This document shows positions 57,336 to 61,421 of a stretch of 64,000 bases of DNA, in pieces. A model generated the notes under the pieces. It worked only from the letters and a program-made list of their open reading frames with translations, searched no databases and was not told the origin of the DNA. Each line of letters begins with the position of its first letter. Positions within the stretch are counted from its first letter, which is position 1. The stretch is from contig CAMJJL010000001.1 of assembly GCA_946406145.1 (NCBI GenBank), positions 62,001 to 126,000 on the forward strand, given 5' to 3'. The position numbers and the translations under genes are program-made. This DNA comes from an uncultured Clostridia bacterium. Lineage in GTDB: Bacteria > Bacillota > Clostridia > Oscillospirales > Acutalibacteraceae.

Positions 57336-58868
57336 ATGGATACTATCTTTAAATTCTTATTTGAGTTTCTAAAGCAGTTCTTCGGCTCTATTTTCAAGGG
57401 TATCGTCGAAATGCTTCAGGCTTTCAACTTCAAGGCCTACTATGATATTATTCAGAATTTCACGGGACAGGGCGAGCTCGGTAAAGGCGTCGCTTGGGTC
57501 ATCGCGATCGTCGCTATGCTCCTTCTTGCCGCTGTTCTGGGTCTGATCATCTTCTTCATCGTGAAGGGCATCATGAAATTCACGAAGTTCAAGAAGAAGG
57601 CGAAGGACACCAACGATCTTGTCAACGAGGTCAACGCGCTGAACAAAGAGGTCATGCGCCTCAATCTCGAGAAGGATAAGATCCTCTCCATGAAGGTTTC
57701 TCAGATCGGTCTGAACCCGAATGAGATCTCCGAGCTGACCGGCGAAGAGCTGGAAGCGCTCAACAAGGAAGAAGAGGAAGAGGTTTCCACCGGCCGTTTC
57801 AACAAGCTGGTCACCATCGACGAGGAGTGGGAGGATTATCAGCCCGAGCCGTACGACTGGGATGTTACCCTGCCCGAGTTTGTTACCAACTTCCGCAACT
57901 TTGCTTGCTCCAGAATGCATTATTGGTATGAGATCAAGCTGCTCCGCTGCTTTGTAGCAGGCTTTGCATCCGGTCGTTTGACGATCCTGCAAGGTATCTC
58001 TGGTACCGGTAAAACTTCACTGCCTTACGCATTCGGTAAATATGTATGCAACCCGGCTGTTATCGCTTCTGTCCAGCCTTCCTGGCGTGACCGTACCGAG
58101 CTGTTCGGCTACTACAACGAATTTACCAAGAGATATAACGAGACGGAGCTGCTCCGTGCACTGTACGAAGCTTCCTATAATGAAAATGTTTACGTCGTCA
58201 TCCTCGATGAGATGAACATCGCCCGTGTCGAGTATTACTTCGCCGAGATGCTGTCCATCCTCGAAATGCCGGCACATGATGAGTGGATCGTCGAGATCGT
58301 TGCGGCTCCCTGGCCGGACGACCCGAAGCATCTGGATCACGGTAAGCTGACAATTCCCGATAACATCTGGTACGTCGGTACCGCGAACAACGATGACTCC
58401 ACCTTTGCTATCACCGATAAGGTTTATGACCGTGCGATGCCCATCGACATCAACACCAAGGGTAAGCCCTTCGACGCTCCCGATACACCGCCGTGTCATA
58501 TCAACTATAAACACTTCACCAAGCTGCTGGAGGATGCTGTTAAGGCGAATCCCATCAGCGAGGAGAACTTGAAGAAGATCGAGATCCTCGACGATTACGT
58601 CATCGAGCACTTCCGCGTTGCTTTCGGTAACCGTGTTATGAAGCAGATCAATTCCTTCGTACCCGCGTTCGTCGGCTGCGGCGGCACAGAGGTCGACGGT
58701 ATCGACTATGCGCTGTGCAAGAAGGTATTCCGTAAGTTTGAGGCGCTGAACATTTCTTACATCCGCGACGAGATCGACGGTCTTGTCCAGCAGCTCGATC
58801 AGCTCTTCGGACGTGAGAACATGAACGAGTGTAAAGAGTATGTCCGCATGCTTCAGAAGATGACCTGA
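57336..58868 (+). CDS. membrane-anchored McrB-like AAA+ ATPase
   Basis: TM near N-terminus; Walker A LQGISGTGKTSL; Walker B VVILDEMNIARVEYYFAEML; GTANNDDSTFAITDKVYDRA sensor. Confidence 0.82.
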   Translation: MDTIFKFLFEFLKQFFGSIFKGIVEMLQAFNFKAYYDIIQNFTGQGELGKGVAWVIAIVAMLLLAAVLGLIIFFIVKGIMKFTKFKKKAKDTNDLVNEVNALNKEVMRLNLEKDKILSMKVSQIGLNPNEISELTGEELEALNKEEEEEVSTGRFNKLVTIDEEWEDYQPEPYDWDVTLPEFVTNFRNFACSRMHYWYEIKLLRCFVAGFASGRLTILQGISGTGKTSLPYAFGKYVCNPAVIASVQPSWRDRTELFGYYNEFTKRYNETELLRALYEASYNENVYVVILDEMNIARVEYYFAEMLSILEMPAHDEWIVEIVAAPWPDDPKHLDHGKLTIPDNIWYVGTANNDDSTFAITDKVYDRAMPIDINTKGKPFDAPDTPPCHINYKHFTKLLEDAVKANPISEENLKKIEILDDYVIEHFRVAFGNRVMKQINSFVPAFVGCGGTEVDGIDYALCKKVFRKFEALNISYIRDEIDGLVQQLDQLFGRENMNECKEYVRMLQKMT

Positions 58869-58877
58869 TAATACAAT

Positions 58878-58932
58878 AAGGCTCCCTTTGGTAAAGGGAG
58901 CTGTCACCGAATGGTGACTGAGGGATTGTACA
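58878..58932. repeat. REP-like palindromic repeat, compact copy
   Basis: aaggctccctttggtaaagggagctgtcaccgaatggtgactgagggattgta. Confidence 0.65.
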
Positions 58933-59003
58933 AATGAACGAGTGTGACATAGTCACACAAGATACAATATCTAATCCGACCCTGACATAAAGGAGTGAGC
59001 CCC

Positions 59004-61421
59004 ATGATTGATTATAGCAGATACTACAGAGTATACGCTGAAATGAAAGACACCCTCGATGGTGACTATGCGCGCGAGTATCTGACATCTGCTTTGGCGG
59101 ACGCCGATAAAGGCAATGATGAGCTCTCCGGTAACGCGTACAACCGTGTTATCGACATGGAATGGGTCGAGATGATCGAGGGCAAGCTGCCCTATATCGA
59201 GAAAGCGATCGATGAGCAGCGTAAGTTCATCGAAGAGTATAAGGAAGTCGACCGAATTGATAAGGTAAAGCAAGTCGGCAAGGATGCTGTCCAGCATTTG
59301 ACACAGCACGCCAACCTGATCATGGCAATCGAGGATGACGGCAGCGTTGTGCCCGAAAGATTGCTGAATACACATCGTGAGGATAGCTTTGCAACCTATG
59401 AGAATCGCTTCCTTCATACGCTGATTCATAACTGCATCATGTTCGTTGAAGCGCGTTTCCGCGCGCTGCAGGACGCTCCTAATGATTCCTCCAGTAAGCT
59501 GAACATGGAGCGTGAGATCACGATCGGTCATGAAAAGTTCGGTTTCAGCCTTGAGCACCATGCGGAGAAGCATGAGCGCGACAAGATCGACAGGGATGAA
59601 GATTTCTCCAATTTGACGGACTATGAGCGTATCGAACGTATACGCATGACGTTAGACGATTTCTGTAATACCGATCTGATCAAGTCGCTCAATGGTTGTA
59701 TCAAGGTAAAATCTCCGATCAATAAAACGAACTGCATTAAGCAGGATCCGGCGTTTAAGCAGTGCTATGACCTCTGGGTGTTCATAGAGGCATACCGCAA
59801 GACCGGTTATGTATTAGAGAAAAACGTCTTTGAAGGTCAGATGCCCGAGGACGTTCAGAAAGATATGTACGACGTCATGGCTTTCCAACATTTCGTCGCT
59901 ACCATCAACACCAACTCCGCTCTCCGTGAAAAGCTCCACGCCGAGTATGTCGCGGAGAATGAGCGCCGTGCCGCCGAGGCGAATAAGCCCGAAGAGGAAA
60001 TGGCGCGATATATCGAGGATAAGATCTATGAGGCTCGCCGTGAAGAAATGGCGCTGCGACTCAAAGAGGTTCGTGAGCGAGAGGTCATTATCGCAAAGCT
60101 GACCGCCGAGCTCGAGCAGGCAAAGGAACAGATCCGTATCCGCGATATCAAGATCAAGGAACTGGAATCCGTTATCGCCGCTCTTAAGAAAGAGCTGGAG
60201 AATCTCCGTGAAGAGCTTCGCAAGGCACAGATCCGCATTATGGATCTCGAGAAAGAGGTCGAAGAGCTCAAGGCGCGTATTGCAGAGCTTGAAGCGAAGA
60301 TCGCAGAACTCGAGGCTACTATCCGCGAGTTAGAGACGCAGATCGCGGCTCATCTTGCGACGATTGCAGCTTTGGAAGGCACCATCGCCGAGCTGCAGGA
60401 GCATATCAAGAAGCTGAACGCCGAGATCGACGGACTTAAGGCAAAAATCGAAGAGCTTAACGGCGTGATCGCCGAGCAAAAGCAGACGATCGCTGAGCGT
60501 GACGCGACGATCACTGAACAGCAGGGCGAGATCGGCAAGCTGAATACACAGGTCGGTACCCTGACGAATACGATCGGCAATCTGAGCGCGGAGAATTCCG
60601 AGCTCAAGGTAACAATCGAGGAAAATAAACGCACGATCGCCGAACAGGCTGATGATATTGCCGCCAAGGCAGCTTCCTTATCCGCCGCGAATGACGCGAA
60701 TGAGAAGCTGACCGACAAATATAACAATCTAAAAAGCGACTATGATGCCGCTGTTGATAAATATTCGAACTACCAGCGTGAGATGGATGATCTCAATCGT
60801 GTGATCGATGAAGGCAATGACGAGAAGAAAGAGCTCGAGCATCAGATCCGTGTACATCTCAACACGATCTCCGCGAAGAATGCCATCATCGCTACATTGA
60901 ATGATGAAAAGTCCGCTTTGAGCGAGCGTATCGATGGCGTCGATGCAGTCGAGCAGCAGGCGAAACGCGATATCATGGCGGCGCGTGAGCAGGTTTCCGA
61001 GATCGAAACAAAGAACGTGGCGTTGAACAATTCTCTGCGCACCCAGATTGCGGCAATGAAATTCCGTGACGATCAGATCGCGGAGCTGCAGGCGCAGCTC
61101 GAGACCGCTGAGCTGACCAAGCAGGCTGAGATCAAAGCGATTCGCGAGAAATATGAGAAGCAGATCGCTGACATCCAGTCGCAGTATGAGGTCAAGATCG
61201 ACACCCTCGAGAACGAAAAGGTTGCCGCGTGCACCTTCTCCGACGACCAGAAATATACCATCCGCCTCAACGCCGAGAAGAAGGCGATCCAGAAGGACTA
61301 CGACGTCAAGCTCGCCGACGCTACCAAAAAGGCAAAGAAGTTTGTCAAGAAAGCGCGCGTGCTTGTCGACGATAAGCCCGAAGCCCTCCTCAATCTCCCC
61401 GAGGCGAAGTATTATAAGTAA
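59004..61421 (+). CDS. DUF2357/McrC-like N-terminus fused to a very long coiled coil
   Basis: PERLLNTHREDSFATYENRFLHTLIHNC pattern; then about 450 residues of heptad repeats (AELEAKIAELEATIRELETQI...). Confidence 0.6.
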   Translation: MIDYSRYYRVYAEMKDTLDGDYAREYLTSALADADKGNDELSGNAYNRVIDMEWVEMIEGKLPYIEKAIDEQRKFIEEYKEVDRIDKVKQVGKDAVQHLTQHANLIMAIEDDGSVVPERLLNTHREDSFATYENRFLHTLIHNCIMFVEARFRALQDAPNDSSSKLNMEREITIGHEKFGFSLEHHAEKHERDKIDRDEDFSNLTDYERIERIRMTLDDFCNTDLIKSLNGCIKVKSPINKTNCIKQDPAFKQCYDLWVFIEAYRKTGYVLEKNVFEGQMPEDVQKDMYDVMAFQHFVATINTNSALREKLHAEYVAENERRAAEANKPEEEMARYIEDKIYEARREEMALRLKEVREREVIIAKLTAELEQAKEQIRIRDIKIKELESVIAALKKELENLREELRKAQIRIMDLEKEVEELKARIAELEAKIAELEATIRELETQIAAHLATIAALEGTIAELQEHIKKLNAEIDGLKAKIEELNGVIAEQKQTIAERDATITEQQGEIGKLNTQVGTLTNTIGNLSAENSELKVTIEENKRTIAEQADDIAAKAASLSAANDANEKLTDKYNNLKSDYDAAVDKYSNYQREMDDLNRVIDEGNDEKKELEHQIRVHLNTISAKNAIIATLNDEKSALSERIDGVDAVEQQAKRDIMAAREQVSEIETKNVALNNSLRTQIAAMKFRDDQIAELQAQLETAELTKQAEIKAIREKYEKQIADIQSQYEVKIDTLENEKVAACTFSDDQKYTIRLNAEKKAIQKDYDVKLADATKKAKKFVKKARVLVDDKPEALLNLPEAKYYK

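What the first reader, a model, noticed from the sequence alone, without database searches (positions are those of the whole stretch)
57336..61421. McrBC-like AAA+/coiled-coil pair embedded in a surface-filament locus
A transmembrane McrB-type AAA+ ATPase (GISGTGKT, VVILDEMN) is followed by a protein whose N-terminus resembles DUF2357/McrC partners but whose C-terminal half is a very long coiled coil. Both sit co-directionally between SipW-type secreted subunits and their signal peptidase, with no restriction methylase or nuclease genes nearby. This suggests a repurposed McrBC-like machine in envelope or filament biogenesis, or a defence module at the surface.
Basis: partly seen in the sequence, partly recalled or inferred. 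Interest (0 to 1): 0.9.

Follow-up and report, generated by a model that had tools for sequence, protein, structure and literature searches.

The report
McrBC-like motor in a filament operon
A gut Ruminococcus carries, inside a conserved operon for exporting and assembling surface proteins, a membrane-anchored relative of a DNA-cutting defence enzyme that has lost its cutting domain, apparently reused as a cell-surface assembly motor; the type was named in 2024 (CoCoPALM) but its function appears untested.

Summary
57336-58868 is a membrane-anchored McrB-type AAA+ protein. 59004-61421 has a true DUF2357 N-terminus (PF09823, above cut-off) followed by a ~500-residue coiled coil. Both lie in a ~20 kb run of co-directional genes: SipW-type secreted proteins and two signal peptidases. 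No nuclease or methylase was found in it.

The pairing is not chance. In 60 genomes of the genus, 40 of 42 with the AAA gene also have this sipW peptidase (the other two lie at contig ends), against 0 of 18 without it. All 78 public loci with room carry DUF2357 next to the AAA gene, and 77 of 80 carry a signal peptidase (three are cut short). The sipW-linked AAA proteins form one clade. The partner is homologous to restriction-type DUF2357 proteins but has no nuclease domain; its coiled-coil tail varies from none to ~650 residues. In 32 loci of other types (not here) a degenerate EAL gene precedes the operon.

This matches "CoCoPALM", named in three sentences in eLife 2024 (PMC11090510) and uncharacterised: a new member of a named but untested kind. 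Most likely it is a nuclease-free McrBC-like ring under the membrane that powers or gates assembly of SipW-processed surface filaments. Defence is less likely: fixed chromosomal locus, no effector.

The parts
57336..58868 (+). McrB-type AAA+ NTPase (510 aa): amphipathic N-terminal helix, one TM helix (~58-76), leucine-rich helix ~95-124, AAA+ domain with NxD-type sensor motif
59004..61421 (+). DUF2357 (McrC N-terminal domain type) partner with a ~500-residue C-terminal coiled coil and no PD-(D/E)xK nuclease domain (805 aa)
55264..56208 (+). SipW-like (archaeal/ER-type) signal peptidase I with Ser/His/Asp candidates and an extended acidic C-tail
   Evidence: NCBIfam NF046067 E=2.5e-19, TIGR02228 above cut-off
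56294..57238 (+). 314-aa single-TM protein conserved in the operon (called M314 here)
53100..53924 (+). SipW-type secreted subunit (274 aa)
54039..54830 (+). SipW-type secreted subunit (263 aa)
61465..62580 (+). SipW-type TM-anchored secreted protein (~371 aa)
62636..64000 (+). Large secreted protein with two CBM26 starch-binding modules; runs past the window (1077 aa in the genome, to window-equivalent 65869). The operon continues with 857-, 949- and 203-aa secreted proteins and a second signal peptidase (window-equivalent 72221-72808), then radC-uvrB

Best explanation
It is a CoCoPALM locus: a nuclease-free McrBC-like machine built into a SipW-type surface-filament operon. Shown here by sequence: the AAA+ protein is TM-anchored and of the NxD branch, its partner keeps the DUF2357 core but not the nuclease, and the pair is locked to a sipW-type peptidase and secreted subunits in one vertically inherited operon. 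Inferred: the AAA+ ring (hexameric by analogy with McrB) sits on the cytoplasmic face. The DUF2357 stalk docks on the ring and stimulates NTP hydrolysis, as McrC does for McrB. The coiled coil tethers or positions the complex. The hydrolysis cycle is passed through the bundle of TM helices to gate, pull on or order the SipW-processed subunits as they are assembled into a surface fibre. In relatives with a degenerate-EAL first gene, that adaptor may switch the motor on and off, as FimX does for the pilus motor PilB.
For: DUF2357 by Pfam, 62 of 67 homologues. Profile-profile homology to restriction-type DUF2357-nuclease proteins over the DUF2357 part only (97.1%, E=5.7e-11). No nuclease: the Bacilli versions are only 362-394 aa, and the window protein's AF2 model (pLDDT 84.6) goes from the helical core straight into the long helix. 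In 60 genomes of the genus AAA and sipW co-occur 40/42 vs 0/18, Fisher p=2e-13; gaps 106-3124 bp in the 37 same-contig pairs. All 19 order-level loci (45-62% AAA identity) carry the trio. Of 80 public loci, 78/78 with room have DUF2357 next to AAA and 77 have a signal peptidase, the other three having under 600 bp upstream. SipW-linked AAA form one clade, 94/95. Degenerate EAL gene just upstream of M314 in 32 of 75 loci with room. Same position next to radC-uvrB in four congeners, with the same tRNA-Ser(GGA) near the other end.
Against: No experiment; interaction and function are inferred from gene order. Filament formation by the subunits is not shown; no TasA/camelysin Pfam domain was hit in the window's subunits. 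Foldseek found no McrC match for the DUF2357 model. The window's own genus lacks the EAL gene in the locus. A few divergent AAA/DUF2357 loci show no recognisable sipW gene (L064, L069, L072).
Confidence: 0.62

Rival explanations
1. AAA+ chaperone or dislocase: the membrane-anchored ring and its coiled-coil adaptor unfold, extract or quality-control SipW substrates stuck at the membrane, rather than driving fibre assembly.
For: Same context evidence. Foldseek of the AAA model finds remodelling AAA+ proteins as well as motors (NorQ, RavA, BchI, dynein, MCM), so the fold alone does not choose. Very variable coiled-coil tail, as expected of an adaptor.
Against: Does not explain the conserved DUF2357 activator or, in relatives, the degenerate EAL gene next to the operon.
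Confidence: 0.2
2. Surface-linked defence module: an McrBC-like system that senses phage at the envelope and kills or restricts.
For: McrBC/CoCoNuT ancestry; AAA protein matches PADLOC candidate PDC-M26A (E=1.1e-34).
Against: No nuclease in the partner. No recurrent defence gene among neighbours; of the PADLOC hits checked, the mad3/mad8/AriA/AbiLi ones were ABC-transporter-type or other P-loop ATPases. Locus fixed in the chromosome of congeners. No plasmid or phage record covers 80% of the AAA protein.
Confidence: 0.08
3. Cell-division or polarity scaffold: TM helix plus leucine-rich helix (FtsB-like) and long coiled coil place the surface structure at a site in the cell; NTP hydrolysis is regulatory.
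For: TM helix followed by a heptad-like helix; long coiled coil in most members; FtsB homology reported in PMC11090510.
Against: Pfam FtsB/DivIC not hit in the AAA protein at E<=1. Walker A, Walker B and sensor residues invariant, pointing to an active motor. Bacilli members lack the coiled coil.
Confidence: 0.1

Closest known systems
[quoted passage not shown] Bell et al., eLife 2024, PMC11090510)
   Same: NxD-type McrB GTPase with N-terminal TM plus helix, DUF2357 partner with coiled coil, signal-peptidase neighbours
   Different: The paper gives three sentences and no function. Added here: absence of the nuclease with a tail of 0 to ~650 residues, co-occurrence statistics, conserved operon order, degenerate EAL gene in other types, fixed chromosomal position
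McrBC (E. coli type IV restriction)
   Same: AAA+ domain (6hz4, E=6.8e-7) and DUF2357-type partner
   Different: No DNA-binding specificity domain recognised, no PD-(D/E)xK nuclease, membrane anchor, surface-protein context
CoCoNuT systems (PMC11090510)
   Same: NxD McrB branch with coiled coils
   Different: No nuclease, HEPN, SmpB/OB or YTH-type gene recognised in the operon; not in a defence island
SipW-TasA / camelysin fibre operons of Bacillus (from established knowledge)
   Same: SipW-type peptidase and secreted subunits with similar signal region
   Different: Bacillus operons have no McrBC-like pair; here many large subunits and two peptidases
PilB-PilZ-FimX type IV pilus motor (PMC8389850)
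   Same: Working analogy only: hexameric NTPase at the membrane; in CoCoPALM relatives a degenerate EAL gene, like FimX, sits with the motor genes
   Different: Unrelated ATPase family, unrelated pilin, EAL gene absent from the window's locus

Membership tests
CoCoPALM | McrB-like NTPase with NxD (not NxxD) motif, usually followed by D or E | tested here: met
   N351-x-D353 invariant; 79 of 80 loci NNDD and one NIDD; a divergent relative has NKDE and restriction-type relatives NMDE or NLDE. HMMER aligns D354 with McrB's D, so the register is a judgement
CoCoPALM | NTPase fused to an FtsB-like TM plus coiled-coil segment | tested here: inconclusive
   TM at 58-76 and a heptad-like helix to ~122 present; FtsB/DivIC family not hit at E<=1
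CoCoPALM | Association with signal-peptidase family proteins | tested here: met
CoCoPALM | Coiled coil fused to the McrC homologue | tested here: met
   Window protein residues ~300-780; absent in Bacilli members
McrBC type IV restriction system | McrC homologue with DUF2357 and PD-(D/E)xK nuclease | tested here: not met
   DUF2357 present; the aligned region ends before the nuclease of restriction-type proteins; short members of 362-394 aa; model without a further globular domain up to residue 372
McrBC type IV restriction system | Cleaves modified DNA | not testable with these tools
   -
CoCoNuT | Nuclease (McrC, HEPN or other) encoded in the operon | tested here: not met
   No nuclease family in the operon proteins nor among the families listed for neighbours of 16 loci (only the 25 commonest families are shown there)
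SipW/TasA fibre system | SipW-type peptidase plus cognate secreted subunits | tested here: inconclusive
   Peptidase clear. Subunit signals have the shape, but TIGR04088 is below cut-off and no TasA-type domain was found

The most novel reading that the evidence does not exclude
A widespread new class of surface-filament assembly motor: a former restriction NTPase, stripped of its nuclease, driving SipW-dependent fibre assembly across Clostridia and Bacilli, controlled in many lineages by a catalytically dead EAL adaptor.
Probability: 0.45. Interest if true: 0.85.

Novelty: new member of a known kind. Interest (0 to 1): 0.6.

Why it matters
If true, a phage-defence enzyme family has been turned into a motor for building cell-surface structures in common gut bacteria, a mechanism with no precedent known to me. 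The locus gives a testable set of partners (AAA, DUF2357, M314, SipW, subunits, and in relatives the EAL adaptor). In this strain one subunit carries starch-binding modules, so the structure may help gut Ruminococcus hold on to starch.

Tried and rejected
Chance neighbourhood: rejected by co-occurrence in 60 genomes and 80 loci. Hidden PD-(D/E)xK in the partner: not found (length distribution, AF2 model, profile alignment). Defence island: the PADLOC hits near related loci that were checked were P-loop ATPases such as ABC transporters; no long plasmid or phage match. Mobile cargo of the adjacent integrase/tRNA-Ser element: rejected, the operon lies at the same place in congeners. Foldseek of the DUF2357 model (coiled coil included) against PDB: no significant match. 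PDB sequence search with the DUF2357 profile: nothing. EAL link inside the window's own locus: looked for, absent (four EAL proteins elsewhere in the genome).

Full report
What is there. The window's contig belongs to a Ruminococcus-like genome (named homologues are Ruminococcus). ORF 57336-58868 is a 510-aa AAA+ protein with one clear TM segment (58-76), GISGTGKT (220-227), VVILDEMN (287-294) and NNDDST (351-356). Pfam alone hardly recognises it (AAA_5 at E=0.005), but a profile of 25 homologues finds E. coli McrB as its best solved relative (E=6.8e-7). ORF 59004-61421 is 805 aa: DUF2357 (30.4 bits, cut-off 23.3) then a long coiled coil.

The surroundings. The pair lies in a run of co-directional genes from 53100 to about 72808 in window numbering: two small secreted proteins, a SipW-like peptidase, a 314-aa TM protein, AAA, DUF2357, then ~371-, 1077-, 857-, 949- and 203-aa TM-anchored secreted proteins and a second signal peptidase, followed by genes whose sequences read as radC, uvrB and other housekeeping genes (radC/uvrB named by eye). 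In three congeners the operon ends at the same radC-uvrB genes and has the same tRNA-Ser(GGA) within about 5 to 13 kb of its other end. It is therefore chromosomal and probably vertically inherited, not cargo of the integrase-bearing element that ends at the tRNA-Ser just upstream.

Is it more than chance? In 60 genomes of the genus, 42 have the AAA gene and 40 of these have the close sipW peptidase; none of the 18 others does (Fisher p=2e-13). The two exceptions have the AAA gene near a contig end. 37 pairs are on one contig, 106-3124 bp apart; 39 AAA-DUF2357 pairs are on one contig, starts at most 1671 bp apart. The genomes are related, so the p-value overstates independence. Across the order, all 19 loci at 45-62% AAA identity keep sipW, AAA and DUF2357 together. 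Among the best 80 loci of GTDB species, which include Christensenellaceae, Erysipelotrichaceae and Bacilli, 78 of 78 with room have DUF2357 beside AAA (in Christensenellaceae with the peptidase gene between them) and 77 have a signal peptidase; the other three have under 600 bp upstream. These 80 are the most similar loci, so they favour close relatives.

Ancestry. Restriction-type relatives (about 30-40% identity, phylum level) lie next to large DUF2357 proteins with a PD...DAK nuclease motif (motif read from the consensus). Their AAA proteins carry NMDE or NLDE where ours carry NNDD, so both fit the NxD branch described in PMC11090510. The sipW-linked AAA proteins form one clade (94/95) apart from them. 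Profile comparison of 67 sipW-linked DUF2357 proteins with restriction-type ones gives 97.1% over the DUF2357 part, ending before the nuclease. The sipW-linked partner proteins are 362 to 994 aa long; the shortest are little more than the core, so the coiled coil is an optional, variable tail and a nuclease is absent. AF2 models: DUF2357 core pLDDT 84.6, AAA 80.5. Foldseek of the first gave nothing significant, of the second AAA+ machines in general.

What else belongs to it. Among neighbour proteins of 16 loci, EAL was the commonest Pfam family. A small EAL gene lies just upstream of the M314 gene in 32 of 75 loci with room, none of them of the window's Ruminococcus type. Judged at eight catalytic positions on an alignment with canonical EALs from the window's own genome, none of the 32 small EAL proteins tabulated keeps the conserved Asn and most have lost several others, whereas seven loci have a large canonical EAL protein. 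The window's own genome has four EAL proteins, none in this locus. The main text of PMC11090510 does not mention EAL or c-di-GMP.

Mechanism. Shown: membrane anchor, conserved NTPase motifs, DUF2357 partner without nuclease, linkage to SipW-type peptidases and secreted proteins. Known from McrBC (PMC11090510 and references there): DUF2357 docks on the McrB hexamer and stimulates hydrolysis. Inferred: the same ring-and-stalk unit, now under the membrane, drives, gates or orders surface-fibre assembly; the coiled coil tethers or positions it; in relatives the dead EAL protein may act as a switch, as FimX does for PilB (PMC8389850, abstract seen).

Known or new. The clade is named CoCoPALM in PMC11090510 with a forthcoming paper announced; no other paper in the library uses the term in this sense apart from that paper's preprint. 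The window is a new member. The nuclease loss with variable tail, the co-occurrence statistics, the operon order and the degenerate EAL association are additions here; supplementary data of that paper were not read and may contain some of them.

Noticed in passing
L112, L113, L115-L119, L123-L125, L127, L129, L130, L133-L136, L141, L145, L150 and order-level loci among L034-L050: Degenerate EAL-domain gene just upstream of the M314 gene in 32 loci; 7 loci have a large canonical EAL protein beyond the second peptidase.
   Followed up: yes
62636-64000 (continues to window-equivalent 65869): Large secreted operon protein with two CBM26 starch-binding modules (E=1.6e-25), suggesting a starch-binding surface structure.
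   Followed up: no
L052:8218-12351 and L064:2533-6666: Variant with two TM-AAA genes flanking one DUF2357 gene beside a 1292-aa secreted transglutaminase-like protein, no recognisable sipW.
   Followed up: partly
49530-51077: Integrase gene followed by tRNA-Ser(GGA): probable end of an integrated element just upstream of the operon.
   Followed up: partly
L101:11571-14093 and L104:11605-14496: DUF2357 proteins whose coiled coil ends in an extra, apparently globular C-terminal region.
   Followed up: no
L122, L132, L136, L141, L145 (Christensenellaceae-type loci): Gene order differs: the SipW peptidase sits between AAA and DUF2357.
   Followed up: no
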